DNA of 40,424 nucleotides from Acidobacteria bacterium 13_1_20CM_3_53_8 (GTDB lineage Bacteria > Acidobacteriota > Blastocatellia > Pyrinomonadales > Pyrinomonadaceae), in assembly GCA_001920415.1 (NCBI GenBank), contig MNJR01000136.1, positions 1 through 40,424 of the forward strand. The letters are read 5' to 3'. How positions within the stretch are numbered: the first letter of the stretch is position 1; every line of letters starts with the position of its first letter. The notes below the pieces were generated by a model. It made no database searches. It was given only the letters and a program-made list of their open reading frames with translations, and was not told where the DNA came from. Positions 4,073 through 23,167 of the stretch are shown piece after piece. The translations under genes and the position numbers were made by a program.

Positions 4073-4129
4073 ATCACACGAAAGGACACGAAGACGAGCT
4101 TCAATCAGTTTCGTGTGGCTTCGTGTGAT
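4073..4129. repeat. Inverted repeat with CACGAA-type arms (H9)
   Basis: The left arm (4073-4092) reads ATCACACGAAAGGACACGAA. The right arm (4110-4129) is its reverse complement except at the central unit. The loop is 17 nt. Each arm is two copies of a CACACGAAA-like unit. A close relative lies at 15896-15966. With the palindrome at 4177-4249 it fills the 384-nt gap between two convergent genes and could act as a two-way terminator. Confidence 0.8.
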
Positions 4130-4176: not shown

Positions 4177-4249
4177 GTCAGTACCGCCTGCGGTAGCGGG
4201 CGGGTGATGCTGCGACGATGACCCGCCCGCTACCGCAGGCGGTACTGAC
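4177..4249. repeat. Perfect 29-bp inverted repeat, GC-rich
   Basis: The left arm (4177-4205) starts GTCAGTACCGCCTGCGG and ends GCGGGCGGGT. The right arm (4221-4249) is an exact reverse complement of all 29 bases. The loop (4206-4220) is 15 nt. It lies between convergent genes, so bidirectional termination or transcript-end protection is possible. The arm sequence differs from the short-unit hairpins elsewhere in the window, so I treat it as a separate repeat type. Confidence 0.9.
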
Positions 4250-4369
4250 TTTAGTCGCACTCAACTGAGAATTGCTATAGTGGATAATTCACTTGCTCGC
4301 ACTTCGTCTTACATCGAACTCACGTTAAACTATGAATCGTGACGGCTTGATGTCGCGTCTTATACACGA

Positions 4370-5449
4370 TTATTTTCTTCTTACAGCCGCTGCGTCGCGG
4401 TCTGTGACTGGAGCTGGGATTTCTACGGCGGGCGCAATCTCGCGGCCTGTAAGTTCCGCGAACAACTCTTCGTAACGGTCAACCACGCCTTCCCAATCAT
4501 AGAGTTCTTTCACGCGTGCCTGCGCTCGCTGACGATAGGAGTGAACCAGAGAGCCGTCGCGCAGCACGCGCTGAAGTTGTTCGGACAACTCTGTCTCGTC
4601 CCTGTAAGGAATGCCAGCCTCGCCGACTGCTTCCAGATTCTCAGGCGTGGCGAGCGTCAGAACACAGTTGCCGTAACCCATAGCTTCCAATAGCGCAGGA
4701 TGCGTGCCGCCGACTTCCGTTGCATGAATGTAGCAGTAGGCGTTCTGTTGAAGCGCTCTATAATCCTGGCCGAAGACGAAGCCGGAAAAGATTATGCGAC
4801 GATCACGGCGCGCGCGTGCGCGAAGGTCGCTGATGTACTCGTGCGCGTAGGGCGCATCGCCAACGATGAGAAGCTTGTAAGCAGTACGCACCTTTTTGAA
4901 AGCTTCTATGACCAGGTGAGCGTTATTTTCAGGTTCAAGGCGCGAGACGTAGAGTACGTAGCGCTGCGGCTCTACGCGCCACTTGCGTATTATCGCAGGA
5001 TTGGGGCGGCGCTCGACCTCTGCGCCGTATGCGATCATGGTCGAAGGCGCGTCGTATTTCGCACGGTAATAGTCCTGTATCACGCGCGCATCGCTAACTA
5101 TGCGATTGGGCAGCATGGTGGCGAGCCTTTCGGTAAGAACGTAGTATTTCCTGCCGAGCCAGTTCCACTTCTTACGCTTATGTTCGAGGCCGTCAACGTT
5201 TAGCGCTACGGGCGTGCCCACTATCCTGAGCATGGGCGCGAACGGCGCGTTCGCAGCGTTGCATACGAGCGCAACGTCATAAAATTCTTTCATAGAATGA
5301 AGCGCAGAGAGGAACGTATGCACCACCGTGTCGAAATACTTGTGGTGAATCGTGGGCAGGACTTTCAGGCGCACGCCGTGAAATTCGAGTTGACGAGGAG
5401 AGACGTAGTGCGAGCGGCAATAGACCGTGACCTCGTGGCCGCGCGCCAC
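4370..5449 (-). CDS. Glycosyltransferase family 4 (DUF1972-type), N-terminally broken
   Basis: The open frame has 359 residues and begins at the conserved LVARGHEVTVYCRSH strand. The C-terminal Rossmann half is intact, with YVSRLEPENNAHLVIEAF and the donor-site E-x7-E region EVGGTHPALLEAM. Family members begin with a MRIAILGTRG strand and a Tyr-Gly-Gly-Phe-Glu loop before this point. Here the first strand is present but in another frame (5453-5486), and the loop is gone. A TGA lies immediately upstream in this frame, and the only start is a GTG without a ribosome site. Activity is therefore doubtful. The intact protein would transfer a sugar in surface polysaccharide synthesis. It is the last gene of the ffh-rnhB block. 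Confidence 0.8.
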   Translation of the reverse strand: MARGHEVTVYCRSHYVSPRQLEFHGVRLKVLPTIHHKYFDTVVHTFLSALHSMKEFYDVALVCNAANAPFAPMLRIVGTPVALNVDGLEHKRKKWNWLGRKYYVLTERLATMLPNRIVSDARVIQDYYRAKYDAPSTMIAYGAEVERRPNPAIIRKWRVEPQRYVLYVSRLEPENNAHLVIEAFKKVRTAYKLLIVGDAPYAHEYISDLRARARRDRRIIFSGFVFGQDYRALQQNAYCYIHATEVGGTHPALLEAMGYGNCVLTLATPENLEAVGEAGIPYRDETELSEQLQRVLRDGSLVHSYRQRAQARVKELYDWEGVVDRYEELFAELTGREIAPAVEIPAPVTDRDAAAVRRK

Positions 5450-5452
5450 CAG

Positions 5453-5486
5453 TCACCCCGCGTGTTCCCAGTATCGCTATTCGCAT
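5453..5486 (-). pseudogene. Detached N-terminus of the glycosyltransferase at 4370-5449
   Basis: From ATG 5486 the sequence reads MRIAILGTRGV, the canonical first strand of DUF1972-type glycosyltransferases. It then runs out of frame into the GTGGCGCGC codons that encode LVARG in the main frame. Compared with family members remembered, about 17 residues are replaced by one nucleotide, a net loss near 50 nt. Either a real deletion or an assembly collapse would give this. Confidence 0.65.
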
Positions 5487-5500
5487 GAGAAGACCAATCA

Positions 5501-5620
5501 GATTTTGGATTTTAGATTTTGGATTTTAGATTGGAATAGCTGTCATCATGAATTTTGGATTTAAGAGTTCGACATCGCTTAAAGACTTAATCCAAAATCC
5601 AAAATCTAAAATCCAAAATC
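5501..5620. repeat. Inverted repeat with TTTTGGA/TTTTAGA heptamer arms (H2)
   Basis: The left arm (5501-5534) is tandem GATTTTG / GATTTTA heptamers. The right arm (5589-5620) is the reverse complement with a single mismatch over 32 nt. The loop is about 54 nt and contains a degenerate extra heptamer pair. It lies in the gap between the two glycosyltransferase genes. Confidence 0.9.
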
Positions 5621-5646
5621 GTTAACATCTTCTTCTCTCAAAATTA

Positions 5647-6852
5647 TCACGTGCTATACGTTACCGCTTTCGCTCGATCGATAGATGCGCGTCCCACATG
5701 CTCGTAAATCTCAAGCGTACGGCGCGCCGTCTCGCGCCAGTCGAAGAGGCGCGCTCGCTCAAGCCCCTTACTCTTAAGTTCGTCGCGCAATTTCTCGTCC
5801 CTTATCACGCGCCCGATTGCGTCCGCGATTGCCTGTTCATCGAAAGGGTCAACGAGCAGCCCCGCATCGCCCACGACTTCCGGCAAGCTCGTTCGATTGC
5901 CCGCAATCACAGGCACACCGCACTGCATAGCTTCAAGGGGGGGCAGCCCGAACCCTTCGAAGTAAGAAGGGTAAACGAAGCCTAGCGCGCCCGTGTAAAG
6001 ACCCGGCAGATCGCTCTCTGACACATAGCCCGTGAAGACTACTCTGCGGCGAACCGTGGAGGTTTCGACCGCGCGCAAGGTTTCACCATAGAGCCATGCG
6101 TGTTTTCCAACAAGGACAAGCTGCGGAAGCTTATCGTGCGGTCTCGCGTGTTGCAAGTTTTCATACGCATGCACTAGACGCACAAGATTCTTACGCGGCT
6201 GAATGGAACCGACGGCGAGCAAGTAGCCTTCTTCGAGTTGGTAGCGGTCACGCACGCGCGCAACCTCTTCGGGGCACGTGGGCTTGAAATGCGCGGGCGC
6301 GGCGTGCGGTATAGTAGTGATTCGCTCCGGCTCGACCCTGTACGTTTCCATGATGTCGCGGCGCGAGTAGTCGGAGCACGTGATGATGTGCGCTGCTGTT
6401 TGCGCAGTCCGTCGCACGGTCAGGCGTAATTGCACGCGGCTGCGTCGCTTGAAAGTTTCCGGTAGATGTTCGAACGCAAGGTCTGGGATTAGAGCTACGA
6501 CCGGGCAGGGTGCAAAAGGCGGTGCAGTGAATTGCACGTGCAGAAGATCAACGGGGCGGCGTCGCAACTCAGCCGCGAGTGTTAGCGGTATGCGCACGAG
6601 CGGCGTGTGCGGCAGCGTCATCTGAACCGCGAAGTTGGGCCAACGCCCCGAAAAGCGCTCGACCGCTTCGCGTCTGGTCACGTAAAGAACCTGTGCCGAC
6701 AGAGTGCGCGTCAATGGCGATTCGCACAAAAAAGCTCCCGTAACGCTATTTTCAGAACAACGGACTGAGGGAAAATTATGGCGCTGGCCGGAGAGTTTAC
6801 CAAAGGAAAGGTAAAAGTAAAAAGGTAAAAGTAAAAAGTCAGGGGAAGCCAA
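5647..6852 (-). CDS. Glycosyltransferase family 4 (GT-B), N-terminally broken
   Basis: From about 6700 downstream the frame encodes a normal GT4 protein: VLYVTRREAVERF, the acceptor-side region HVQFTAPP, HIITCSDYSRRDI, the donor-domain start LLAVGSIQPRKNLVRLV and the E-x7-E motif YEGFGLPPLEAM. The first ~50 residues of the open frame are not family-like. They translate the hairpin at 6802-6920 and an out-of-frame copy of the true N-terminus, which is visible at 6689-6727 with its own ribosome site. The N-terminal Gly-rich loop of the fold is missing. The gene probably served surface glycan synthesis with its neighbour. I expect it to be inactive unless the frame is a sequencing artefact. Confidence 0.75.
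   Translation of the reverse strand: MASPDFLLLPFYFYLSFGKLSGQRHNFPSVRCSENSVTGAFLCESPLTRTLSAQVLYVTRREAVERFSGRWPNFAVQMTLPHTPLVRIPLTLAAELRRRPVDLLHVQFTAPPFAPCPVVALIPDLAFEHLPETFKRRSRVQLRLTVRRTAQTAAHIITCSDYSRRDIMETYRVEPERITTIPHAAPAHFKPTCPEEVARVRDRYQLEEGYLLAVGSIQPRKNLVRLVHAYENLQHARPHDKLPQLVLVGKHAWLYGETLRAVETSTVRRRVVFTGYVSESDLPGLYTGALGFVYPSYFEGFGLPPLEAMQCGVPVIAGNRTSLPEVVGDAGLLVDPFDEQAIADAIGRVIRDEKLRDELKSKGLERARLFDWRETARRTLEIYEHVGRASIDRAKAVTYST
6689..6727 (-). pseudogene. Detached N-terminus of the glycosyltransferase at 5647
   Basis: GTG at 6727 follows GGGAG by about 7 nt and opens (V/M)RIAIDAHSVGTG, the standard first strand and loop of many GT4 enzymes. After GTG the frame leaves the gene: the next bases encode VLYVTRRE in a different frame. 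Family members have roughly 25-30 residues (GGNE loop and first helix) between these blocks. The ribosome site indicates that this was the original start. Confidence 0.65.
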
Positions 6853-6920
6853 ATTCTTATTAAAAGCGGTTTGCGGCCTTCCTTTTGCCTTTTACCTTTT
6901 TACTTTTACCTTTTGCCTTC
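6802..6920. repeat. Inverted repeat with GGTAAAAGTAAAA arms (H3)
   Basis: The left arm (6802-6838) repeats GGTAAAAGTAAAAA. The right arm (6881-6920) is its reverse complement with minor changes. The loop contains AAAAGCGGTTTGCGG. The right arm includes the rnhB stop codon (6906-6908), and the left arm is translated as the spurious N-terminus of the next glycosyltransferase frame. A second copy of this family lies at 33573-33696. Confidence 0.9.
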
Positions 6921-7712
6921 TCTGCCAGCGAGTACGCCGCGAAAGCTTTTTCGATGAAGCGGGCACGGCCCGTGCTCATTCAATGCTTCCCAATGAGCGC
7001 GCGTGCCGTAGCCCACGTGACGCGCGAAACCATATTGCGGATAGACTTCATGGAACGCGCGCATCAGAGAGTCGCGGTAAGTTTTCGCTATAATGGAAGC
7101 GGCGGCGATTGAAGCGGAAACTGAATCGCCTCCGATAATAGCCTTCTGCGGGAGAGCGGATTCTTTAAGCTGGATTGCGTCAATGAGCAGGAAGTCTGCG
7201 CTTGGGGTTAGCTGGCCGAGCGCCTCCATCATCGCCAGTCGCGTCGCGCCCAGAATGTTCAGTCTGTCAATCTCGTCCGCCTCAACCTGTCCCACTGCGT
7301 AACAGATCGCAGTTTGCAAAATCTCATCAGCAATTCTTTCGCGCTGCAATGCTGTGAGGCGCTTGGAATCGTCCAGACAGTAGGGCAGAGGTTTTTCGGA
7401 ATCGAGTATGACTGCCGCAGCGACGACAGGCCCTGCGAGCGCGCCTCGCCCAACTTCATCAACTCCTGCAATGAACTGGAATCCTTGCGCGCGCGCCTCG
7501 TCTTCAAAGGCCATGCAAACGGCAGATTGCCTGCGACGCCTGCGAAGGGATGAAGAAGAGACACGGAGACGCGGGGACGCGGGGACGCGGGGAGCGGAAG
7601 ATATTGGGGCGTGGTGAGAAATAGTTTCGGAAGACTCGTTTATTTCTTCTCGCCGCGTCTCCGCGTCCCCGCGTCTCCGTGTCTCTTCCAACCGTGCCCC
7701 TGCGTCGTCCAT
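6906..7712 (-). CDS. rnhB: Ribonuclease HII
   Basis: RNase HII cuts the RNA strand of RNA/DNA hybrids and removes misincorporated ribonucleotides. The catalytic core is clear: GVDEVGRGALAGPVV (first Asp-Glu pair), LDDSKRL, LLIDAIQL and the SASIAAASIIAKTYRD segment. The frame opens at ATG 7712, which overlaps the rplS stop as TAATG and suggests translational coupling. The first ~66 residues, however, are a Glu/Arg/Ser-rich stretch that translates the hairpin at 7555-7688. The conserved protein starts near MAFEDEARAQGF (ATG 7514, about 202 residues), which has no good ribosome site. A hairpin insertion kept in frame would explain this. The last codons run into hairpin H3. Confidence 0.9.
   Translation of the reverse strand: MDDAGARLEETRRRGDAETRREEINESSETISHHAPISSAPRVPASPRLRVSSSSLRRRRRQSAVCMAFEDEARAQGFQFIAGVDEVGRGALAGPVVAAAVILDSEKPLPYCLDDSKRLTALQRERIADEILQTAICYAVGQVEADEIDRLNILGATRLAMMEALGQLTPSADFLLIDAIQLKESALPQKAIIGGDSVSASIAAASIIAKTYRDSLMRAFHEVYPQYGFARHVGYGTRAHWEALNEHGPCPLHRKSFRGVLAGREGKR
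7555..7688. repeat. Inverted repeat with GGAGACGCGGGGACGC arms inside the rnhB frame (H4)
   Basis: The left arm (7555-7592) begins GAAGAGACACGGAGACGCGG and continues with GGGACGC units. The right arm (7653-7688) is the reverse complement with one mismatch in 36 nt. The ~60-nt loop is AT-richer. It occupies the 5' part of the rnhB reading frame without a stop codon. This is the only GC-rich member of the short-unit hairpin class in the window. Confidence 0.9.
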
Positions 7713-8110
7713 TACTCTTTAGTCGCTGCTGCTGCTTTCTGCGTAGGCTCGCTCGCGGAGTTTCGCGTGTCGCGCTCGCGTATGCGCGCGGCCTTACCGC
7801 GCAGGTTGCGCAGGTAGTAGAGTTTGGCGCGGCGCACGCGCCCACGCTTAACCAGATCAATGTGGTCAATTATCGTAGCGTGCAGCGGAAAGATTCTCTC
7901 CACGCCGACGCCGAAGCTTGTCTTTCTAACGGTCACGGTCTCGCGCACGCCGCCATGCTTGCGCGCCACGACCACACCCTCGAACGCCTGCAAGCGCTCT
8001 TTAGTCTCAGACTCTTTGATACGCACGTGCACACGAATCGTATCGCCCGGCTGAAAAGCAGGAATCTTTTCGCGCAACTGCGCCTTCTCAACTGCATCTA
8101 AGCGGTTCAT
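7712..8110 (-). CDS. rplS: 50S ribosomal protein L19
   Basis: The protein has 132 residues. [16 protein letters not shown], the [17 protein letters not shown] core, [18 protein letters not shown] and [21 protein letters not shown] cover the whole L19 family. An Ala/Lys/Glu tail is added. L19 lies at the 30S-50S interface. ATG 8110 is preceded by GGAG about 10 nt upstream. It lies between trmD (166-nt gap holding H5) and rnhB (1-nt overlap), the usual order of this operon. Confidence 0.97.
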
Positions 8111-8156
8111 TTGTCTTTACTCCGTAAAGAAGTGGTAAGTGATGAATGATAAGAAC

Positions 8157-8243
8157 AATTTTTAATCTTTAATTATAAGTTTTTAGTATTAAGAAAGAAG
8201 TCATTTGCTTCTACTAAAAACTAGGGATTAAAAATTAAAGATT
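8157..8243. repeat. AT-rich inverted repeat between trmD and rplS (H5)
   Basis: The left arm (8157-8188) and right arm (8212-8243) share the ends GTTTTTAGTA / TACTAAAAAC and TAATCTTTAATT-type units in opposite orientation, with a slipped internal unit. Outer flanks TGATGAATGATAAG (left) and CTTATCACTC (right) add GTGATAAG-like units resembling the hairpin at 34611. The loop includes GAAGTCATTTGCTTC. Confidence 0.65.
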
Positions 8244-8276
8244 TTTTCTCGTCGCTCTTCTTCACCATCTTATCAC

Positions 8277-9026
8277 TCAAATATCGTTATCAAACTTTTC
8301 AAGCAGAGCTTTGTCGCGTTCGTCAAGCTCTGCGTTTTCTAAAAGATCAGGACGATTTCGTTTCGTCTTCTTGAGCGCCTGTTCGCGCCGCCAGCGTTCT
8401 ATCTCGGCGTGATGTCCGCTTAAGAGAACTTCCGGCGCTTGCATCCCGCGAAACTCCGGCGGGCGCGTGTAATGCGGGAAGTCCAGCAGGCCGCCCGTGA
8501 AAGATTCGTTCGCGGCGGAAGTCTCACTCCCCAACGCGCCGGGCACGAGCCGCACAATTGCGTCAACAAGTACGACTGCTGCCGGTTCGCCCCCAGACAG
8601 AACGTAATCTCCAATAGAAATTTCGTCCGTCACCAGAGCATCTGCTACGCGCTCGTCTACGCCTTCGTAGCGACCGCAGATTAAGATCAAGCGCTCGCTC
8701 TGTGCCAACTCCTCTGCCAGTTCTTGAGTAAACGCGCGACCCTGCGGCGAGAGCAACACAACGCGAGTTCCCTGCTTGTAACTTTCGCGCCCGCTCGCTC
8801 CCGTCAAACTCTCGACTGCATCAAAGATCGGTTCCGGCTTCAAGACCATCCCGTCGCCGCCGCCGAACGGCCTGTCATCCACCTGCCTGTGCTTATCCCT
8901 GGTGAAAGCGCGCAGGTCGTGCAACTTCACCTCTATCAACCGGGCGGCCTCGGCGCGCCTGATTATCCCGTGCTCGAAAGCGCCTCGGAAAAAGTCCGGG
9001 AAGATGGTTATGATGTCAAATCTCAT
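8277..9026 (-). CDS. trmD: tRNA (guanine37-N1)-methyltransferase
   Basis: The 249-residue protein methylates G37 next to the anticodon using S-adenosylmethionine and so prevents +1 frameshifting. TrmD marks are all visible: [31 protein letters not shown], the knot region [29 protein letters not shown] and [13 protein letters not shown] 9026 touches the left arm of hairpin H6, so the ribosome site would be in repeat DNA. The gene lies between rimM and rplS, the standard order. The C-terminus ends in the flank of H5. Confidence 0.97.
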
Positions 9027-9146
9027 TTTGGATTTTAGATTTTGGATTTTGGATTGGGTTTTGCGACTAACAACTTCGGGACTTGAAACCTTAAGGGGAT
9101 TTTCCCAAGCTCTTAATCCAAAATCGGCAATCCAAAATCTAAAATT
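9025..9146. repeat. Inverted repeat with TTTTGGA/TTTTAGA arms (H6)
   Basis: The left arm (9025-9055) and right arm (9115-9146) are GATTTTG/GATTTTA heptamer arrays in opposite orientation. One unit in the right arm is changed to GATTGCC. The loop of about 59 nt holds GTTTTGCGACTAACAACTTC. The rimM stop codon (9139-9141) and the trmD start codon (9024-9026) both touch the arms, so this repeat forms the whole junction. Confidence 0.9.
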
Positions 9147-9693
9147 CCAACATTCCTTCGGGCGCGTCCACGCGAATCCGTTTCTCTTTCACATCAATCT
9201 CCACGCAAATCTCTTCGGCCAGTGGTATCAGGTAATCGCGCCCATCTTCGTTTTTCACGACGAGCATCTCTACGCCGCCCGTCTTCAACACTTCAGTGAC
9301 CGTCCCCAACCGTTCGCCTTCGATTGTCTCGACCTCGCAGCCTTGAAGCTCCCAATCGTAGAACTCGTCCTCACCGAGCGGCACGCGCTCGCGTTCGGGC
9401 ACGGCCAGTTCGCGTCCTATTAACGATGTGGCCTCTTCAATCGAATCAAACCCGGCGAATTTCAGCACGACGCGCCCTTTCTGGAACCAGTGCTCTTCAA
9501 GCTTAAGAGTTTCGCGGCGTCCATCGGGCGCGATTGCTATCAAGCGTTCAAGGCCATCGAAGCGCTCTGGGAAGTCTGTCAGAAGTTCCCCAATAACTTC
9601 GCCGCGAAGACCGCGCGTCCTTACAATAAAGGCGACTGCGACCAACTCTTCATCAGCAGCAGCATCGAGCTTGCGCCTTTCGCCTTCATTCAT
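9139..9693 (-). CDS. rimM: Ribosome maturation factor RimM
   Basis: The protein has 184 residues. The N-terminal barrel [25 protein letters not shown] and the C-terminal PRC barrel [19 protein letters not shown] with [14 protein letters not shown] fit RimM, which binds S19 and aids 30S head maturation. ATG 9693 overlaps the khpA stop by 4 nt (ATGA), indicating translational coupling. The final codons and stop lie in hairpin H6. Confidence 0.95.
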
Positions 9694-9920
9694 TCCACGA
9701 TTTCCAGAACGTAGCGACGGTTGCGCTTCGTGCCAACGGCGTGAAGCAGCGAGCGCATGGCTCGAACGGTGCGACCCTGACGGCCTATGACCTTGCCCAT
9801 GTCGTCTGGCGCTACGCGAATCTCTATCAAGGTGGTTCCGCCCTTCTCCACTTCGCGCACGTCCACAGCCTCGGCGTCATCCACGATTGCCTTGACGATC
9901 ATCTCGACGGTCTCTCTCAT
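9690..9920 (-). CDS. khpA: KH-domain RNA-binding protein KhpA
   Basis: The 76-residue protein is a single KH domain: IEIRVAPDDMGKVIGRQGRTVRAMRSLL contains the G-x-x-G loop (GRQG) and its flanking helices. KhpA binds RNA in the cytoplasm and in several bacteria works with a Jag/KhpB partner (family knowledge). It lies between rpsP and rimM, its usual place, overlaps rimM by 4 nt, and follows hairpin H7 by 3 nt. Confidence 0.93.
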   Translation of the reverse strand: MRETVEMIVKAIVDDAEAVDVREVEKGGTTLIEIRVAPDDMGKVIGRQGRTVRAMRSLLHAVGTKRNRRYVLEIVE

Positions 9921-9923
9921 AAA

Positions 9924-10049
9924 AGTCTAGAGTCTGGAGCCAGATTGATTTTCGATTTTAGATTTGCGATTTTAGATTTAAAAGCTTTTGCGCTTCTTCC
10001 AATCGAAAATCGCAAATCTAAAATCGAAAATCCAGTCTGACTCTAGACT
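9924..10049. repeat. Composite inverted repeat with TCTAGA ends and CGATTTT heptamers (H7)
   Basis: The outer arms AGTCTAGAGTC (from 9924) and GACTCTAGACT (to 10049) flank inner arrays of GATTTTC, GATTTTA and GATTTGC units, paired over about 45 nt. The loop contains AAAAGCTTTTGCGCTTC. The rpsP stop codon (10043-10045) lies inside the outer arm. The composite build suggests one hairpin nested in another. Confidence 0.9.
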
Positions 10050-10297
10050 GTTTCAGCTTGCGCCTTGGCGTTCTGCTTGATGATGCGGCGAACGGTCTCC
10101 GTAGGCTGCGCGCCGCGCTCTATCCAGTATTGCACGCGGTCTGCTTTCAAGTTTATCTCCGCAGGGTTGCGCGTGGGGTTATACGTCCCCAGATTTTCTA
10201 TGTACGCGCCGTCGCGCTTTGAAAGCTTCTCCTTCACTACAATTCTGTACGAAGGCTGCTTCTTCGCGCCCATGCGCATAAGTCTGATTGCTAACAA
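10043..10297 (-). CDS. rpsP: 30S ribosomal protein S16
   Basis: The protein has 84 residues from TTG 10297. IRLMRMGAKKQPSYRIVV, the YIENLGTYNP turn and DRVQYWIERGAQPTETV are diagnostic of S16. The frame stays open upstream to 10369, but that part translates hairpin H8. The TTG start preceded by GGAGG 8 nt upstream gives the expected N-terminus (MLAIRLMRMG). The stop lies in hairpin H7. It is second in the minus-strand block after ffh. Confidence 0.95.
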   Translation of the reverse strand: MLAIRLMRMGAKKQPSYRIVVKEKLSKRDGAYIENLGTYNPTRNPAEINLKADRVQYWIERGAQPTETVRRIIKQNAKAQAETV

Positions 10298-10305
10298 GTC
10301 GTAAT

Positions 10306-10310
10306 CCTCC
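10306..10310 (-). promoter_or_regulatory. Ribosome binding site setting the rpsP TTG start
   Basis: GGAGG on the minus strand lies 8 nt before TTG 10297. It is the strongest ribosome site of the block and argues against the longer upstream frame. Confidence 0.75.
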
Positions 10311-10318
10311 AAGTGATA

Positions 10319-10389
10319 AAAGGGTGAATGGTGAATGGTAAATAGAAAAAGCTTTAATCCATTTACCATTTACCATTCACCATTCACCT
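10319..10389. repeat. Inverted repeat with GGTGAAT/GGTAAAT arms (H8)
   Basis: The left arm (10319-10343) is AAGGGTGAATGGTGAATGG plus GTAAAT. The right arm (10361-10389) is its reverse complement with one extra GGTAAAT heptamer. The loop is AGAAAAAGCTTTAATCC. The ffh stop codon (10384-10386) lies in the right arm. Confidence 0.9.
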
Positions 10390-11901
10390 TTTTTTCTTCT
10401 TCCGTTTCTTCTTCAATTTCTTGCGCGATGGCGCGGCGGGCAGTTGTGGCAGCGAGCCACCGTCAAAGTCACCGTCATCATTCATCATGCCGCTCATGTC
10501 TGGCATGCCCATCATCCCGGCCATGCGCCGCATCATGCGACCCTTCATTCCGCCGCCGCCTCCGCCGCTCGCTCCGCCGAAAAGCCCTGAGCCGGAAAGC
10601 TGCCTCATCATCTGGCGCATCTCTGTGTACTGCTTGATGAGCGCGTTCACTTCCGCAACCTGAGTGCCTGAGCCGCGAGCGATTCTGCGACGACGATTCG
10701 CGTTCAGTATGATGTGATTGTCGCGCTCTTCCGCCGTCATAGAATCAATGATAGATTCCGTTCGCTTCAATTCCTTCTCCATCTGCGCCGTCTGCTCTTC
10801 CGATAGCTCAGGCATGCCTATGCCGCCTAGAAGTTGATCGGGCAGCAGCTTCATGATTTTTGAGAAAGAGCCTAGCCGTTTTACCTGACGAAGTTGAGCG
10901 CGAAAATCGTCGAGCGTAAATTGGTTCTTCTGAAGTTTTTTAAGTTGCGCTTCGGCTTCCGTCTGGTCAACTTTCGATTGAACCTCTTCAATGAGCGAGA
11001 GCACATCGCCCATACCAAGGATTCGCTGCGCAATCCGATCTGGATAGAACGGTTCGAGCGCATCATACTTTTCGCCCACGCCTACGAATTTTACGGGCTG
11101 GCCTGTGACCTGTTTTATGGAAAGAGCAGCGCCACCGCGCGCGTCGCCGTCCATCTTCGTCAGCATGACGCCCGTGATTCCAACGCGACGATGAAACTCT
11201 TCGCCAGAGCGCACTGCGTCCTGACCAGTCATTGCATCCGCCACGAACAGAATCTCAATCGGTTTGGTCTCGCCCTTGATTGCCACAAGCTCTTCCATCA
11301 ACTCATCGTCAATGTGAAGTCGCCCGGCTGTATCAATCAGAAGAGTGTCGAAGCCAGTCTGTTGCGCGTGCTTGTAAGCTTCGCGCGCGAGCGTGCGCGC
11401 GTCGTTCGTCTCTGGCATCTCGAAGATTGATTGACCCGTAGCGCGTGCTATCACCTTCAACTGCTCGCGCGCGGCAGGGCGATAAACGTCCGTAGAGACC
11501 AAGAGCGGTTTTCGCTCCTGATTCTTCGCCAGCCACATTGCGATTTTTCCTGTCGAAGTGGTCTTGCCAGAGCCTTGAAGACCTACGATCATCACTACAT
11601 TTGGAATCTGCTTCGTGAAGACAAGGCGTGAAGATGTGCCGCCGAGCAGTTCCACCAACTCATCGTAAACAATCTTGACGACCTGCTCCGAAGGTTTCAG
11701 TTCGGTCCAGACCTGCTGCCCTTCCGCTTTCTCTTTGACCGCCGCGATGAAGTCTTTGGCGACTTTGTAATTCACGTCCGCTTCAAGAAGCGCCATGCGG
11801 ATTTCGCGCAGCGCGGCCTCGACATGCTCGCGTGTGAGCACACCTTCGCCCCTCAAATTCTTGAGCGTGCGCTTCAGCTTGTCGGACAAAGATTCAAACA
11901 T
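10384..11901 (-). CDS. ffh: Signal recognition particle protein Ffh
   Basis: Ffh binds 4.5S RNA and signal sequences and delivers nascent chains to FtsY. The protein has 505 residues from ATG 11901 (MFESLSDKLKRTLKNLRG). A GTG 24 nt further upstream is possible but not family-like. NG domain: GLQGSGKTTSTGK (G1), STDVYRPAAREQL, LLIDTAGRLH (G3) and TKMDGDARGG (G4). The Met-rich M domain follows with an unusually Gly/Met-rich linker and a Lys/Arg tail (KKLKKKRKKKKR) likely to aid RNA or membrane contact. It is the first gene of the minus-strand ribosomal block. The end of the gene lies in hairpin H8. Confidence 0.97.
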   Translation of the reverse strand: MFESLSDKLKRTLKNLRGEGVLTREHVEAALREIRMALLEADVNYKVAKDFIAAVKEKAEGQQVWTELKPSEQVVKIVYDELVELLGGTSSRLVFTKQIPNVVMIVGLQGSGKTTSTGKIAMWLAKNQERKPLLVSTDVYRPAAREQLKVIARATGQSIFEMPETNDARTLAREAYKHAQQTGFDTLLIDTAGRLHIDDELMEELVAIKGETKPIEILFVADAMTGQDAVRSGEEFHRRVGITGVMLTKMDGDARGGAALSIKQVTGQPVKFVGVGEKYDALEPFYPDRIAQRILGMGDVLSLIEEVQSKVDQTEAEAQLKKLQKNQFTLDDFRAQLRQVKRLGSFSKIMKLLPDQLLGGIGMPELSEEQTAQMEKELKRTESIIDSMTAEERDNHIILNANRRRRIARGSGTQVAEVNALIKQYTEMRQMMRQLSGSGLFGGASGGGGGGMKGRMMRRMAGMMGMPDMSGMMNDDGDFDGGSLPQLPAAPSRKKLKKKRKKKKR

Positions 11902-12113
11902 AAGGCTTATAGGACGAAAATCCACACTAAAGCGGAAACGAAGATGATAACGGCGGCTGCAAAGTGTGTCAAGGCAAGGGAGTTATACGTGAAAAGCCTG
12001 TGCCGTCTCGCGTCTTCATTTACTCTCTTTCCGGCTTTGGCGAGAGGTTCAGGCGTCGGTGGCTATGCCTAGATTTTGCAGTGCGCTCTAAGTTCTTTAG
12101 ATAGGAGATTACT

Positions 12114-12233
12114 ATGGGAAGAAGTTTCTTGACTCTCAAAATAAGCGAGAGTAGAGTTCCCGTGTCTAGCAAGCTTGTTAAGCAAGAGCCTCAACTCCTT
12201 AACGAGTCCTGCTCCTGTTTAATTACTAATTGA
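12114..12233 (+). CDS. Possible 39-residue small protein
   Basis: ATG 12114 follows AGGAG with a 6-nt spacer, one of the best ribosome sites in the window. The frame gives MGRSFLTLKISESRVPVSS and continues to a Cys-Ser-Cys near the end (NESCSCLITN). No family is recognised. The 491-nt gap between divergent ffh and the secreted protein otherwise holds only a putative promoter. It could be a leader peptide or chance. Confidence 0.3.
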   Translation: MGRSFLTLKISESRVPVSSKLVKQEPQLLNESCSCLITN

Positions 12234-12259
12234 CATTCAAGCCGATAGCGATGGCTAAT
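12230..12259 (+). promoter_or_regulatory. Putative sigma70-type promoter for the gene at 12393
   Basis: TTGACA (12230-12235) is followed after 18 nt by GCTAAT (12254-12259). A second -10-like TATGAT lies at 12268-12273. This gives a leader of about 125 nt before ATG 12393. Only the -35 box is a perfect match. Confidence 0.3.
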
Positions 12260-12392
12260 GCAGTACCTATGATGTCAAGTTGCATGTAATTTATCGCAAC
12301 GCTGAGTCATGTTATCCTTTCTTTACTAGGATCAATGGAACGACAGTTTCGCTTTGCCTTATTCCTCTAGCGGTTAATCAGGAGACCCCACC

Positions 12393-14501
12393 ATGAAAAG
12401 AGTTTTACTCTCAGTTTACCTCATATCATTGCTGGTTTGGTCAGTAAACTTTCGCACAACCAATGGCACTGAGCTACTCGCCCAACAGCAAACTCCCTCA
12501 CAACAATTAGAAACATCCCCTTCACCCAGAGAGCGATATGCTCGACTATCAGAGAATTTCAAATCGGGGCGCGAACTACTACGACGCAAAGGAGTGCCGT
12601 TTGATCCAGATTTACTTTTAAGTTCTAGATGGCAAGATTTACTTGGTCCCAAGCTTGCCCAGATGCCTGAGATGCAGATAACGCGACGGCTAAACAAACA
12701 GGTGAAAGGTGTACAGCTTGGCAATATCCTGTACTTGCCTGAAAAAGTGGAGCTTACTGGAGATACAGTATTCCTTGCTAATCAGATAATCTTTGAAGGA
12801 CATAATGGACTCATAAAAGGTAATTACAACGTCTACTTCTTTCCTGTGGTTATGGAAGGCGCTTTAGGTACGACTTTAGAAGTTGCCATGAACAATCAAC
12901 GAGAGTCGTTCTCTAGAGTCAGCTTCAACGGGTCAACACCGACAAAGCCATTTGTTCCGCATCTGCTACAAGAAGATTGGAGTATTACCATTGATACCAG
13001 CGGTCAAGGCCAACAGGAGTGGCTTAAGAAGCAACAGCAGACCACCCGCGTTGGATTTGTAAGAACCTCTTTGCAAACTACTACTGACCAGAGCGGTGAA
13101 CCGGGCGCAACCGGGCCGACCGGGAGCACGGGAGAGACGGGAAGCAGTGGAGCACCAAGCCCATCTATTCCGGGCGATAACGGAGCGTGTGGTAATCCAG
13201 ATGGTTTAACCGGATTTCCCGGTAGTCAAGGCGGCACGGGCGGAGCAGGAGGTGTAGGCGAAAGAGGCATCAAAGGTGGCGACGCAAGACCCATTACGGC
13301 CACTATCAATTCCAGAACTGGCACTTACACTTTTCTAGCCAACGGTGGTGATGGAGGACAAGGCGGAGAAGGTGGGCGGGGCGGCGCGGGTGGTCTCGGC
13401 GCAGATGGAGGAAGAGGCGGTAACGGAGCCGATTGCACATGTGACCAAGGCGGTGCGGGTAATGGCGGCAATGGCGGAATGGCCGGACAAGGAGGTAAAG
13501 GCGGAAAAGGGGGGAACGGCGGCCCCGGTGGGCCAGGTGGAAGCGGCGCAGATATTAACGTCAAAGTCCCAGATAACTTCATCGGAACAATTATTCATTC
13601 CGTGTGGGGAGGAAGAGGCGGCCCTGGCGGAAACCAAGGTCATGGCGGCTTTCCCGGAACATCTGGATTGGGCGGTCAGCCGGGCAGTAAAGCTACTAAC
13701 TTCAACTGTCCTTCATCAAACCCACATGATGGTGCACGGGGAGTTGATCGCGCGCCCCTCGGATTTGGCGATATTGCAGATGCCAGAGGAGAGGACAACG
13801 ATACACGTGCGGCTGATGGTCACTTCGATCTACATTACAGAGGTTGCAGTATTGAAACTGGCGGCGGACCCTACGGTGCCGGTGTTTGCGAAGACCCGCC
13901 GGAGGGTGGGTGTCCTGCCAGTTCCTTCTGGAGTAGGTCATGGTGTGAATGTATTTGCTCGGGCACTAGTCCTATCTTAATAGATATACAAGGCAATGGC
14001 TTTCAACTAACAGATGCACAGAATGGCGTGAACTTCGACATTAACGCTGATGCTACGGCTGAACATCTGGCATGGACTGCTGCTAATTCAGATGATGCAT
14101 GGCTAGTCTTAGACCGCAACGGCAACGGCACGATTGATGATGGAACAGAGTTGTTCGGTAACTTCACTCCACAACCATCATCACCTAATCCAAACGGATT
14201 CCTTGCTCTAGCCGAATACGATAAGACATCAAACGGAGGCAATGAGGATGGAATGATTGATAGCCGTGACGCTACCTACTCGCAGCTTCGCCTCTGGCAA
14301 GACACGAATCACAATGGCATCTCTGAGCCTAATGAGTTGCACGCTTTATCTGAGCTTGGTGTAGAGAGCATTTCACTTGATTACAGAGCAGCGAGAAGGC
14401 GCGATCAGTACGGTAATGAGTTCAGGTACAGGGCAAAAGTTTATGGAGTGAATCATAGGGATTTGGGACGTTGGGCTTACGACGTGTTCCTCATACATTA
14501 A
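12393..14501 (+). CDS. Secreted collagen-like, glycine-rich protein with EF-hand-like C-terminal domain
   Basis: The protein has 702 residues. ATG 12393 follows AGGAG by 8 nt. Residues 1-32 form a signal peptide. Residues ~33-230 are non-repetitive and contain a beta-rich segment ([20 protein letters not shown]). Residues ~235-260 carry collagen-like Gly-x-y triplets ([16 protein letters not shown]). Residues ~275-440 are dominated by Gly-Gly-x repeats. A Cys-rich patch (CECICSG) precedes a C-terminal region with [16 protein letters not shown] and two Asp/Asn-rich loops ([17 protein letters not shown] and [12 protein letters not shown]). The latter resembles calcium-binding modules seen in RTX and other large surface proteins. 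It is probably a cell-surface or matrix protein. Ligand and partners are unknown. Confidence 0.85.
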
Positions 14502-15895: not shown

Positions 15896-15966
15896 ATCCA
15901 CGAATCCACACGAAACGACACGAAATGAGCATCTCTCTTCGTGTTGTTTAGTGTGGGTTCGTGGAT
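15896..15966. repeat. Inverted repeat with CACGAA-type arms (H11)
   Basis: The left arm (15896-15924) starts ATCCACGAATCCACACGAAA. The right arm (15938-15966) is its reverse complement with three mismatches. The loop is 13 nt. It is the same family as 4073-4129. It lies between the divergent MFS and TPR-sigma54 genes. Nothing else could be supported in the 426-nt gap (15779-16204). Confidence 0.85.
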
Positions 15967-21582: not shown

Positions 21583-21600
21583 GAAACCCTCGTGATAAGG

Positions 21601-21685
21601 ACAGTTTTCAGTTTTTAGTTTTCAGTTTTCAGTAAAAGCCGGTTCGCTTCTTACTGAAAACTGAAAACTAAAAACTGAAAACTGT
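21601..21685. repeat. Perfect 35-bp inverted repeat of AGTTTTC/AGTTTTT heptamers (H12)
   Basis: The left arm (21601-21635) is ACAGTTTTCAG followed by TTTTTAG, TTTTCAG and TTTTCAG units and TAA. The right arm (21651-21685) is an exact reverse complement. The loop is AAGCCGGTTCGCTTC, preceded by TAA. The stop codon of the next gene is 3 nt away. It is the first of four same-family hairpins within 1.6 kb. Confidence 0.95.
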
Positions 21686-21687
21686 TC

Positions 21688-21963
21688 TTACATTTTTCCC
21701 CAAAGCATCAAGACACCAATGATTATAAATGCAATCGCCGCAACGTTGTGTATGAGCTTTTCGGGCAGATATTGCCCCAAGAGCGTGCCGACTGCAACGC
21801 CGATCAATGAGACTAGCGCGAGCGCCAGCGCTGCGCCTACGAATACGGACAGGGGCGAGCGCGTTTCAGCCGCAAGTGTGATTGCTGCCAACTGCGTCTT
21901 GTCCCCCATCTCCGCAATAAACAATGCGCCGAAAGTCGTCCAGAACGCGCTCCACTTGAACAT
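21688..21963 (-). CDS. GDT1/TMEM165 (UPF0016) family cation transporter, single repeat
   Basis: The protein has 91 residues and three hydrophobic segments. The family signature E-x-G-D-K-T is present (FIAEMGDKTQLAAI, ~residues 16-29). Full-length relatives carry two such repeats and export Mn2+ or exchange Ca2+/Mn2+ for protons. A single-repeat protein would have to work as a dimer (inference). ATG 21963. Hairpins H12 and H13 flank the gene, and the Usp and unknown genes on either side share its strand. Confidence 0.85.
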   Translation of the reverse strand: MFKWSAFWTTFGALFIAEMGDKTQLAAITLAAETRSPLSVFVGAALALALVSLIGVAVGTLLGQYLPEKLIHNVAAIAFIIIGVLMLWGKM

Positions 21964-21974
21964 ATTTACCTCAG

Positions 21975-22068
21975 TGAAAAGAGCAGTTTTCAGTTTTTAG
22001 TTTTCAGTAAAAAGCATTTCTCTTCTTTCTGAAAACTAAAAACTGAAAACTGAAAACTGCTCTTTTCA
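21975..22068. repeat. Inverted repeat of AGTTTTC heptamers with unequal arms (H13)
   Basis: The left arm (21975-22007) is TGAAAAGAGCAG plus heptamers, 33 nt. The right arm (22029-22068) is the reverse complement with exactly one extra TTTTCAG heptamer, 40 nt. The loop is TAAAAAGCATTTCTCTTCTTT. The right arm contains the stop codon (22066-22068) of the next gene. Arm length differing by one unit points to slippage in a tandem array. Confidence 0.95.
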
Positions 22069-22905
22069 TACAACTCTCGTTCCAGCTATGCGGTCAAGTT
22101 GCTGTAGAAGTTGAAAGCGTGCGAGCGCGGCTTCACGGCGGCGCGCTAGCACGGCCAACTCAAGCGCCACGCGCTCGCGCACGTTGCGTTCGCGCCCGCC
22201 TGTGGCTACGCGATTGACCGTGCGGCGCAGGACTTCGACTATGCCGCCGAGTATAGCGCTCTTGTTGTGCCTGCCCACGATCTCGACTGCGCCGTGCGAA
22301 TAATCGAAGCCGGTCACCGAACGGTCAAGAAACGGGTAATCGTCCGAGAGTTCAAAACTAATTTCCCTGAAAATGGCGGGAAAATCTGCGCCCGCGCTCA
22401 GACACGCGCGCTCGACCGCTGCTATCAAATCCCCGCTCGCGCGCAGCAGGTCTTGCCACTCCTCTTCTTCCCTGAAATCTTCTTCAGCTTGCGCGTCCCC
22501 GTATGACTCAGCACCGAAGTCTGGGCGATGAAAAGTTTCGGCGCGCGTGCGCTCTACAAGTGCAGATTCAAACTTTTCTTCCGTCTCGGTGTAAACGCTT
22601 ATGGAGCCGCCGGGATCGGTGGCGCGAACAAGAAGACGCTGAAGCGCGCCCTCGCCCTCTGCCACGCGCCCCATCGAGCGGTCTCTTTCCTGCACCTGCG
22701 GCTTCAGTCCGGGGCGAAGCCACACATCAGCATCATACTCGTCCAACTCGACGCGCACGCGACCCGCGAAATTCTGGCGCTGCAAGTATCGCAGCAACTC
22801 CGCCAGATTCACATAGCTCGTATCAAGATTCTCGTAAAGAGGACTGGATGTATCGCTCGATTCGCGCATAACGGTTGAAAAAATTCGTGCGGCGGAGCAT
22901 AACAT
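22066..22905 (-). CDS. Conserved-looking hypothetical protein of unknown function
   Basis: The frame gives up to 279 residues. The likely start is ATG 22869 (MRESSDTSSPLYENLDTSYV, 267 residues) because the 12 residues before it translate the flank of hairpin H14. There is no signal peptide or membrane segment. The N-terminal part (SYVNLAELLRYLQRQNFAGR) recalls DUF4388-type modules, a weak resemblance only. The middle is acidic (QAEEDFREEEEWQDLL). The C-terminus is a helical, Arg/Ala/Leu-rich region likely to form a coiled coil (ALELAVLARRREAALARFQL). Its stop lies in H13. Probably cytoplasmic. Confidence 0.7.
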   Translation of the reverse strand: MLCSAARIFSTVMRESSDTSSPLYENLDTSYVNLAELLRYLQRQNFAGRVRVELDEYDADVWLRPGLKPQVQERDRSMGRVAEGEGALQRLLVRATDPGGSISVYTETEEKFESALVERTRAETFHRPDFGAESYGDAQAEEDFREEEEWQDLLRASGDLIAAVERACLSAGADFPAIFREISFELSDDYPFLDRSVTGFDYSHGAVEIVGRHNKSAILGGIVEVLRRTVNRVATGGRERNVRERVALELAVLARRREAALARFQLLQQLDRIAGTRVV

Positions 22906-23004
22906 AAAAACAGTTTTAAGTTTTTAGTTTTCAGTTTTCAGTAAAAGCATCGCACACCTTTCTGAAAACTAAAAACTTAAAACTGTTTTTATGTTATGCT
23001 CCGC
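22892..23004. repeat. Perfect 43-bp inverted repeat (H14)
   Basis: The left arm (22892-22934) runs GCGGAGCATAACATAAAAAC, then AGTTTTA/AGTTTTT/AGTTTTC heptamers. The right arm (22962-23004) is an exact reverse complement over all 43 nt, including the 19-20 non-heptamer bases. The loop contains GTAAAAGCATCGCACACC. It is the longest perfect inverted repeat in the window and overlaps the 5' end of the open frame at 22066-22905. Confidence 0.95.
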
Positions 23005-23064
23005 GCGATAAATTTACAGCTTTTGCACGCTCGGACTTCAAGCAAGACATGAATTTAGTGATAA

Positions 23065-23167
23065 GTGATAAGAGCAGTTTTCAGTTTTTAGTTTTAAGTT
23101 TTAAGTTAAAAGCATTTCGCTCCTTTCTTAAAACTGAAAACTAAAAACTGAAAACTGCTCTTATCAC
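23065..23167. repeat. Inverted repeat of AGTTTTC/AGTTTTA heptamers with GTGATAAG ends (H15)
   Basis: The left arm (23065-23106) starts GTGATAAGAGCAGTTTTCAG. The right arm (23127-23167) is its reverse complement with one mismatch. The loop is TTAAAAGCATTTCGCTCC. It lies just upstream of the APC permease, 34 nt before its start, so it will be in the 5' leader if the promoter is upstream. Confidence 0.93.

What the first reader, a model, noticed from the sequence alone, without database searches (positions are those of the whole stretch)
4370..11901. Every non-overlapping junction of the ffh-to-glycosyltransferase block carries one hairpin
H8 (ffh/rpsP), H7 (rpsP/khpA), H6 (rimM/trmD), H5 (trmD/rplS), H4 (rplS/rnhB core), H3 (rnhB/GT) and H2 (GT/GT) cover seven of seven junctions. 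Only the overlapping khpA-rimM pair has none. For ffh, rpsP, rimM and rnhB the stop codon itself lies in a hairpin arm, and the trmD start codon touches one. Such regular placement in a highly expressed operon suggests mRNA processing or differential expression, or insertion at gene ends as the only tolerated sites.
Basis: seen in the sequence. Interest (0 to 1): 0.65.

Follow-up and report, generated by a model that had tools for sequence, protein, structure and literature searches.

The report
Heptad-armed hairpins filling operon spacers
The hairpins between these ribosomal and housekeeping genes are real, but they belong to a genome-wide set of short repeated hairpins, mostly built from 7-letter units, that lodge between genes, rather than to a special switch of this operon.

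Summary
Confirmed: all seven non-overlapping junctions from ffh to the second glycosyltransferase carry an inverted repeat (arms 31-45 nt); khpA-rimM, which overlap, have none. The pattern is not specific to the operon. A 392-kb sample of the same genome holds 96 such hairpins (control 1), 93 mostly non-coding. Same-direction spacers of 60-250 nt are occupied in 50 of 87 cases, shorter ones in 0 of 58. In 60 of 96 the arms are imperfect arrays of 7-nt units. Families are dispersed; one has at least about 140 copies. Relatives keep the gene order but not the hairpins: one genus can hold filled and empty versions of a junction, or unrelated heptads. These are most likely dispersed repeats inserted at gene ends, nearest to cyanobacterial heptameric STRR repeats; the GATTTTG family also occurs on Nostoc plasmids. 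Unexplained and worth following: period 7 kept while sequence varies, C-poor 5' arms (33 of 40 heptad families G>C), and heptads resembling the preceding gene's last bases. Operon-specific processing is unsupported; effects on RNA are untested.

The parts
10315..10396 (.). H8, ffh/rpsP hairpin, heptads GGTGAAT/GGTAAAT; holds the ffh stop codon
9931..10049 (.). H7, rpsP/khpA hairpin: inner GATTTTN heptads (arms 9947-10032), outer AGTCTAG/AGTCTGG-type stem; four further copies of this compound element were aligned
9025..9145 (.). H6, rimM/trmD hairpin, GATTTTN heptads; holds the rimM stop, touches the trmD start
8154..8246 (.). H5, trmD/rplS hairpin, AT-rich, 80% complementary; period not scored
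7555..7688 (.). H4, rplS/rnhB hairpin, GGGGACGC/GAGACGCG units (period 8)
6807..6913 (.). H3, rnhB/glycosyltransferase hairpin, GGTAAAA/GTAAAAA heptads; holds the rnhB stop
5501..5620 (.). H2, glycosyltransferase/glycosyltransferase hairpin, GATTTTG/GATTTTA heptads
10384..11901 (-). ffh (SRP54); start uncertain (frame open to 11925)
   Evidence: Pfam; frame
10043..10297 (-). rpsP (S16); TTG start inferred
   Evidence: Pfam
9690..9920 (-). khpA
   Evidence: Pfam
9139..9693 (-). rimM
   Evidence: Pfam
8277..9026 (-). trmD
   Evidence: Pfam
7712..8110 (-). rplS (L19)
   Evidence: Pfam
6906..7514 (-). rnhB (RNase HII); start inferred from the domain position
   Evidence: Pfam; gene call
5647..6852 (-). 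glycosyltransferase (group 1); start uncertain, this frame runs into H3
   Evidence: Pfam; frame
4370..5449 (-). glycosyltransferase (group 1)
   Evidence: Pfam

Best explanation
The seven hairpins are copies of dispersed, non-coding hairpin repeats whose arms are mostly imperfect tandem arrays of 7-nt units. They have spread through spacers of this Pyrinomonadaceae-like genome and survive at gene ends because insertion there costs little. Many operon spacers are long because they were filled: across relatives a median of 18 nt remains once the hairpin is taken off; in this block, by my subtraction, 0 to about 77 nt remains. Shown: genome-wide dispersal, period 7, near-confinement to spacers, filled and empty versions of a junction within a genus, conserved loops in dispersed copies of one family. 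Inferred: that copies move as whole hairpins, that they settle preferentially where the gene end resembles their heptad, and that slippage plus templating of one arm by the other keeps period and pairing. Any effect on the mRNA (a long duplex open to a double-strand-specific RNase, masking of the trmD start) would be a by-product and was not tested.
For: 96 hairpins in 392 kb against 1 in the resampled control, 93 mostly non-coding. Mean lag-7 self-match of arms 0.62 against 0.34 shuffled; 129 non-coding period-7 arrays, 117 in hairpins (a looser hairpin definition), other periods 5, 6, 8, 9, 10, 11 giving 0, 1, 8, 0, 7, 3 arrays. Same-direction spacers of 60-250 nt: 50 of 87 occupied; under 60 nt 0 of 58; the hairpin starts a median 8.5 nt after the upstream stop in 64 single-hairpin spacers. 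Same operon in 44 loci: 61 of 219 junctions occupied; occupied spacers have a median of 91 nt, 18 nt (quartiles 10-25) without the hairpin; unoccupied 45 nt; under 40 nt 0 of 76 occupied. Within a genus: G034 against G010, ffh/rpsP 18 and 91 nt, rpsP/khpA 9 and 90, rimM/trmD 3 and 100; G003 against G030, rpsP/khpA 4 and 79, trmD/rplS 27 and 88, with different heptads at ffh/rpsP and rimM/trmD. Dispersal: the CAGTTTT-armed element with its loop gives 150 matches in the genome, about 140 sites by my hand count; only 150 candidates were scored, so this is a lower bound; 73 exact copies of GATTTTGGATTTTAGATTTTGG, 0 of the reversed control. Control: 1 of 69 TrmD loci of more distant genomes (L063-L131) has a period-7 hairpin.
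Against: Long spacers without a detected hairpin are common in relatives: 30 of 45 at 60-80 nt and 23 of 56 at 80-120 nt, so length is not only hairpin; decayed hairpins were not looked for. In this block some spacers stay long after subtraction (H5, H4, H2). No mobilising enzyme was found: PF00078 has no match in the genome, and G010 (91% complete), with 7 period-7 hairpins in 26 kb, has no match to PF00078 or PF01797. I looked for target-site duplications only by eye and saw none I could define. The block's seven in a row exceeds shuffled runs (0 of 2000 reach seven), but only this block was curated by hand; the longest automatic run is 5, which 31% of shuffles reach.
Confidence: 0.7

Rival explanations
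1. Operon regulation: each hairpin is kept by selection to cut the transcript (double-strand-specific RNase) or to set translation of each gene, giving different outputs from one operon.
For: Strong folds on the transcribed strand at 7 of 7 junctions. Three stops lie in arms, a fourth in an extended stem, and one start touches an arm. At one junction, hairpins of unrelated sequence stand in two species of a genus (G003 and G030, rimM/trmD), as selection on structure alone would give. A cyanobacterial paper suggests transcript stability or translational coupling for such repeats (PMC2670836, passages).
Against: 158 of 219 homologous junctions have no detected hairpin; in L140, L146, L151, L162 and L163 none was detected at any of the operon junctions read. 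Similar hairpins fill spacers of the genome at large, also convergent (9 of 27) and divergent ones (11 of 31). No RNA data were available.
Confidence: 0.16
2. Local origin: slippage makes a heptad array from the gene's own 3' end, and fold-back copying turns it into a hairpin, with no transposition of copies.
For: In 52 operon hairpins of relatives the last 9 nt of the gene match the arm beyond the stop better than in any of 500 permutations, also when permuted within the same gene (last 12 nt: 1 of 500 within gene). GATT-like arms follow rimM in 9 of 16 cases, other genes in 4 of 59 (Fisher p 4e-5; motif chosen after looking), and rimM ends in TTTT plus stop in 9 of 26 cases without a hairpin. 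G010 ffh: the gene's AAGTAA is paired with TTACTT in the 3' arm.
Against: Dispersed families, one with a conserved loop. In the window's own genome the match is weak (12 of 300 permutations reach it). The GATTTTG family also occurs in cyanobacteria. In one search, 24 of 52 arms include some of the coding end, so hairpins that rewrote the gene end may add to the match.
Confidence: 0.1
3. REPIN/RAYT: all hairpins are REP-type elements moved by a Y1 transposase.
For: One Y1 gene (L175, G000:C23) has the CCGCCTGCGG hairpin on both sides; that hairpin makes up 7 of 96 sampled hairpins, one at window 4177-4249.
Against: None of the other three Y1 genes has a heptad hairpin directly beside it within the 1.5 kb seen on each side; L173 has a non-periodic inverted repeat beside the gene and a heptad-type hairpin about 1 kb off, behind another gene. 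G010 has heptad hairpins and no PF01797 match; G016 has 16 PF01797 matches and no period-7 hairpin in 32 kb. The CCGCCTGCGG arms are not 7-periodic.
Confidence: 0.03

Closest known systems
Short tandemly repeated repetitive (STRR) / heptameric repeats of filamentous cyanobacteria
   Same: 7-nt units, several families, intergenic, able to form hairpins, found between operon genes (PMC2670836, passages). The GATTTTG family occurs on Nostoc, Tolypothrix and Calothrix plasmids, with both arms at L208 19067-19167 (Nostoc).
   Different: Host is another phylum. Here 117 of 129 arrays sit in inverted pairs; the cyanobacterial comparison is small and mixed: 1 of 9 arrays in 50 kb of a Nostoc plasmid, 5 of 6 in 40 kb of a Tolypothrix plasmid. 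The 5'-arm polarity and the likeness to gene ends were not mentioned in the passages I saw.
GGGNATC heptameric repeats of Xanthomonas and Nostoc (PMC4692102)
   Same: Heptad arrays over-represented between genes; length and sequence vary at the same sites in related strains (abstract and passages).
   Different: Studied as G-quadruplex formers; no inverted pairing mentioned in the passages seen.
REP/REPIN elements with RAYT transposases
   Same: Dispersed intergenic hairpins; a REPIN-like family with a flanked Y1 gene is present in this genome.
   Different: Arms not periodic and linked to a Y1 gene; no such linkage was seen for the heptad families.
Small dispersed repeats (SDR) of Nostoc punctiforme (recalled, paper not seen)
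   Same: Short dispersed elements, often nested in heptameric repeats (recalled).
   Different: 21-27 nt units defined by sequence (recalled).

Membership tests
STRR (cyanobacterial heptameric repeats) | Tandem units of 7 nt | tested here: met
   Lag 7 dominates arms in the genome and in relatives
STRR (cyanobacterial heptameric repeats) | Many copies, several families, between genes | tested here: met
STRR (cyanobacterial heptameric repeats) | Same unit sequences as in cyanobacteria | tested here: inconclusive
   GATTTTG family matched on Nostocales plasmids (39 records in all, among them 3 Borreliella and 2 Acinetobacter); the CAGTTTT and CTTTGCGC elements gave no plasmid match, with BLAST's low-complexity filter on
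STRR (cyanobacterial heptameric repeats) | Arrangement of arrays (direct, with hairpins possible) | tested here: inconclusive
   117 of 129 arrays in hairpins here; 1 of 9 and 5 of 6 on two cyanobacterial plasmid stretches
REPIN/RAYT | Hairpin copies flank a Y1 transposase gene | tested here: not met
   Seen only for the CCGCCTGCGG family; not for heptad families at the four Y1 genes of the genome
Rfam RNA family | Match at gathering score | tested here: not met
   0 matches in the window
Intrinsic terminators | G+C-rich stem followed by a T run | tested here: inconclusive
   Terminator-like sites in 4300-12400: 11, shuffles 10.4 (sd 3.8); the scan covers only loops of 3-8 nt, so it is a weak test of these hairpins
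Operon-specific regulatory hairpins | Conserved at the same junctions in relatives | tested here: not met
   61 of 219 junctions occupied, families differ

The most novel reading that the evidence does not exclude
A class of selfish hairpins in which the 7-nt period and a C-depleted 5' arm are fixed but the sequence is free: the element copies itself without a dedicated transposase, joins at the stop-codon end of a gene by short homology between its heptad and the gene's last bases, often supplies the new stop codon, and keeps its arms matched by using one as template for the other. This would explain why the same junction carries different heptads in different species and why GATT-like heptads favour rimM, whose conserved GLLEF-type end often reads GAATTTTAG.
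Probability: 0.2. Interest if true: 0.75.

Novelty: new variant of a known kind. Interest (0 to 1): 0.5.

Why it matters
Heptameric repeats are known in cyanobacteria, but a 2009 paper still calls their function unknown (PMC2670836, passages). The ffh-rplS operon, kept in order across many genera with filled and empty junctions, is a natural experiment: it gives near-empty sites and links the inserted heptad to the gene end. Why seven, and why the 5' arm avoids C, become testable. It also warns against reading every hairpin between operon genes as a regulator, and shows how such repeats can make stop codons and mislead the calling of gene starts.

Tried and rejected
Rfam: nothing. Intrinsic terminators: no excess, weak test. 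Reverse transcriptase or Y1 transposase as mobiliser, presence against hairpin density read by eye: no agreement. Stop-codon trap (7 being no multiple of 3, a stop in the heptad would recur in every frame): stops in 5' arms no more frequent than with permuted heptad columns (239 of 300 permutations reach the value in the own genome, 61 of 300 in relatives); rejected beyond base composition. Heptad seeded by the gene end in the own genome: weak (12 of 300). Arm covariation: a copy's own partner arm fits a little better than arms of other copies (0.943/0.925, 0.934/0.921, 0.976/0.927; at or above the 95th percentile of others in 4 of 15, 6 of 18, 10 of 18); suggestive only. Gene calls come from a simple codon-usage caller of mine (76% coding, 280 genes), so starts and small genes are uncertain. 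In one search the GATT-like motif was chosen after inspection and non-periodic hairpins were counted too. Plasmid searches for two other elements found nothing. Papers: among those listed (titles and starts of abstracts) none was about heptad hairpins in Acidobacteriota; the trmD-operon search gave nothing used.
Full report
WHAT IS THERE. The window is G000:C83:1-40424 of a 6.1-Mb genome in 155 contigs; its closest named relatives by TrmD are Pyrinomonadaceae and other Acidobacteriota MAGs. The block on the minus strand is ffh-rpsP-khpA-rimM-trmD-rplS-rnhB-GT-GT (Pfam). Every non-overlapping junction carries one inverted repeat with arms of 31-45 nt; all seven fold on both strands with z from -2.5 to -8.8.

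NOT AN OPERON FEATURE. In the window plus 20 stretches of the same genome (392 kb) a strict detector (arms of 20 nt or more, 82% complementary) finds 96 hairpins; a first-order resampled control gives 1; 93 are mostly non-coding and 2 lie over 70% in called genes. Same-direction spacers of 60-250 nt carry one in 50 of 87 cases, those under 60 nt in 0 of 58; convergent spacers 9 of 27, divergent 11 of 31. In 64 single-hairpin same-direction spacers the hairpin begins a median 8.5 nt past the upstream stop. The block therefore shows a genome-wide habit. Seven in a row is more than shuffled spacers give (0 of 2000 shuffles reach seven), but this block alone was curated by hand, since my automatic calls missed H5 and mis-set the rpsP start; the longest automatic run is 5, reached by 31% of shuffles.

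HEPTADS. Arms repeat with period 7: for arms of 22 nt or more the mean self-match at lag 7 is 0.62 and at lag 14 0.62, against 0.34 shuffled; other lags from 2 to 13 give at most 0.41; best lag is 7 or 14 in 59 of 91, no clear period in 25. By the cut-off used later (lag-7 match 0.6 or more) 60 of 96 are periodic. 129 non-coding period-7 arrays were found, 117 inside hairpins by a looser definition; arrays of periods 5, 6, 8, 9, 10, 11 number 0, 1, 8, 0, 7, 3. The block shows several families: GATTTTN (H2, H6, inner H7), GGTGAAT (H8), GGTAAAA (H3), a period-8 GGGGACGC (H4), and AT-rich H5. In the sample the three largest families have 18, 18 and 15 members. In the CAGTTTT family most loops read like AAAAGC..TTCGCTTCTT, in either orientation. 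A strict form of this motif occurs in 12 of 96 loops (8 CAGTTTT, 4 GATTTTN elements), in 8 other non-coding places and, in far more sequence, 32 coding places. A covariance model of the CAGTTTT element gives 150 matches in the genome, all that were scored, about 140 distinct sites by hand count; with stricter filters 33 of 60 genomes, the own among them, have matches. The exact string GATTTTGGATTTTAGATTTTGG occurs 73 times in the genome and in 14 of 60 genomes (own included); its reversed control 0 times. As a negative control, 1 of 69 TrmD loci from more distant genomes (L063-L131) holds a period-7 hairpin.

RELATIVES. The same operon was read in 44 loci. Of 219 junctions up to 400 nt, 61 carry a detected hairpin (ffh/rpsP 14 of 36, rpsP/khpA 9 of 35, khpA/rimM 1 of 38, rimM/trmD 16 of 41, trmD/rplS 12 of 44, rplS/rnhB 9 of 25; the window's own H5 counts as missed, so these are lower bounds). 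Occupied spacers have a median of 91 nt, 18 nt without the hairpin; unoccupied ones 45 nt (quartiles 10-75). Occupied share by length: under 40 nt 0 of 76, 40-60 nt 1 of 22, 60-80 nt 15 of 45, 80-120 nt 33 of 56, over 120 nt 12 of 20. So long spacers without a detected hairpin are common too. In the block itself my subtraction leaves 0 nt (H6), about 10-20 nt (H7, H8) and about 60-80 nt (H4, H5, H2); for H3 the downstream start is uncertain. Within genera there are filled/empty pairs (G010/G034, G030/G003; G005/G031 at khpA/rimM, where the starts are not aligned) and junctions with unrelated heptads. In 792 kb from 36 relatives 140 hairpins (3 in the control) have lag-7 self-match 0.57 against 0.29 shuffled, best lag 7 in 74. 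Some heptad families are shared with the window's genome, many are not: the period is more constant than the sequence.

TWO ODD REGULARITIES. First, polarity: in period-7 hairpins the 5' arm, on whichever strand it is read, is G-rich and C-poor (own genome 60 of 60 G>C; relatives 62 G>C, 9 C>G, 4 tied). Of 40 heptad families in 165 arms from 36 genomes or viral contigs, 33 are G>C, 5 C>G, 2 balanced; base shares of 5' arms A 0.31, C 0.09, G 0.28, T 0.32; one pair of families are each other's reverse complement. Non-periodic hairpins lean the same way but less (24 against 11; 36 against 16). I have no explanation; a stop-codon-trap idea failed its control. Second, the heptad resembles the end of the preceding gene: in 52 hairpins of relatives the longest match between the last 9 nt of the gene and the arm beyond the stop averages 3.96, permuted 3.21, permuted within a gene 3.50, 0 of 500 reaching it in either case. 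GATT-like arms follow rimM in 9 of 16 cases and other genes in 4 of 59 (p 4e-5, motif chosen after inspection, genomes not independent). rimM ends in TTTT plus stop in 9 of 16 junctions with and 9 of 26 without a hairpin, other genes in 3 of 228, so this end does not depend on the insertion. Against: two GATT-like arms follow rimM ends without TTTT plus stop (GAGCTGTGA, GACTTGTGA), some matches may come from hairpins that rewrote the gene end, and in the own genome the effect is weak (12 of 300 permutations reach it).

MECHANISM. Best reading: copies of hairpin repeats are inserted in spacers and tolerated at gene ends; short homology between heptad and gene end biases where they join; slippage and arm-to-arm templating keep period and pairing (inferred). 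No enzyme is implicated: the genome has no PF00078 match and four PF01797 genes, one of them flanked by the non-periodic REPIN-like hairpin; G010 (91% complete) has neither family but 7 period-7 hairpins in 26 kb. Regulation is possible as a side effect, for instance at trmD, whose start touches H6, but was not testable here. That E. coli expresses the genes of its trmD operon unequally is recalled, not looked up.

KNOWN KIND. The nearest known kind is the STRR or heptameric repeat of cyanobacteria, described as usually 7-bp units that can form hairpins, between genes, function unknown (PMC2670836, passages; its reference list names Jackman and Mulligan 1995 on 'highly variable but structured intergenic regions', title only seen). 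Nostoc hyp-operon spacers hold repeated strings, some of them hairpin-forming (PMC2408588, passages). Heptamer abundance has been ascribed to polymerase slippage (PMC4692102, passages). A BLAST of H2 against plasmids returned 39 records, led by Nostoc (7) and Tolypothrix (6), with a few non-cyanobacterial ones (Borreliella 3, Acinetobacter 2); no record covered 80% of the query. On two plasmid stretches 1 of 9 (Nostoc) and 5 of 6 (Tolypothrix) arrays lie in hairpins, so that pairing sets these repeats apart only weakly. I file this as a new variant of a known kind for the host phylum, the near-universal inverted pairing, the polarity and the link to gene ends; 'new member' would also be defensible.

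Noticed in passing
L175 (G000:C23), Y1 gene at 1396-1905 of the locus; window 4177-4249: A Y1 transposase gene is flanked on both sides by the CCGCCTGCGGTAGCGGGCGGGT hairpin, a REPIN/RAYT-like set; one copy lies just beyond the block.
   Followed up: partly
window 7515-7712: H4 lies in an open frame that would extend RNase HII by some 66 residues up to rplS; gene callers may annotate the hairpin as protein.
   Followed up: partly
L034:7221, L037:10300, L048:1889, L048:2859: Loops of these GGTAAAA-family hairpins hold a shared inner stretch like GGACACGCC..GGCGTGAATTAAAGATTAAAAATT (read by eye), so elements seem nested.
   Followed up: no
L035, L041, L044, L051: Four sampled stretches (about 68 kb) have no strict hairpin, unlike the others; foreign islands or contaminant contigs are possible.
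   Followed up: no
L196, L197, L205, L206, L207: Contigs classed as viral carry several heptad-type hairpins of varied sequence, so other hosts or their proviruses may share the habit.
   Followed up: no
window 4073-4129, 15896-15966: Hairpins with CACGAA-type arms of best period 10; similar arms at L034:5727, L037:691, L039:4442.
   Followed up: no
window 21596-23167: Four CAGTTTT-family hairpins lie within 1.6 kb, in three successive spacers.
   Followed up: partly
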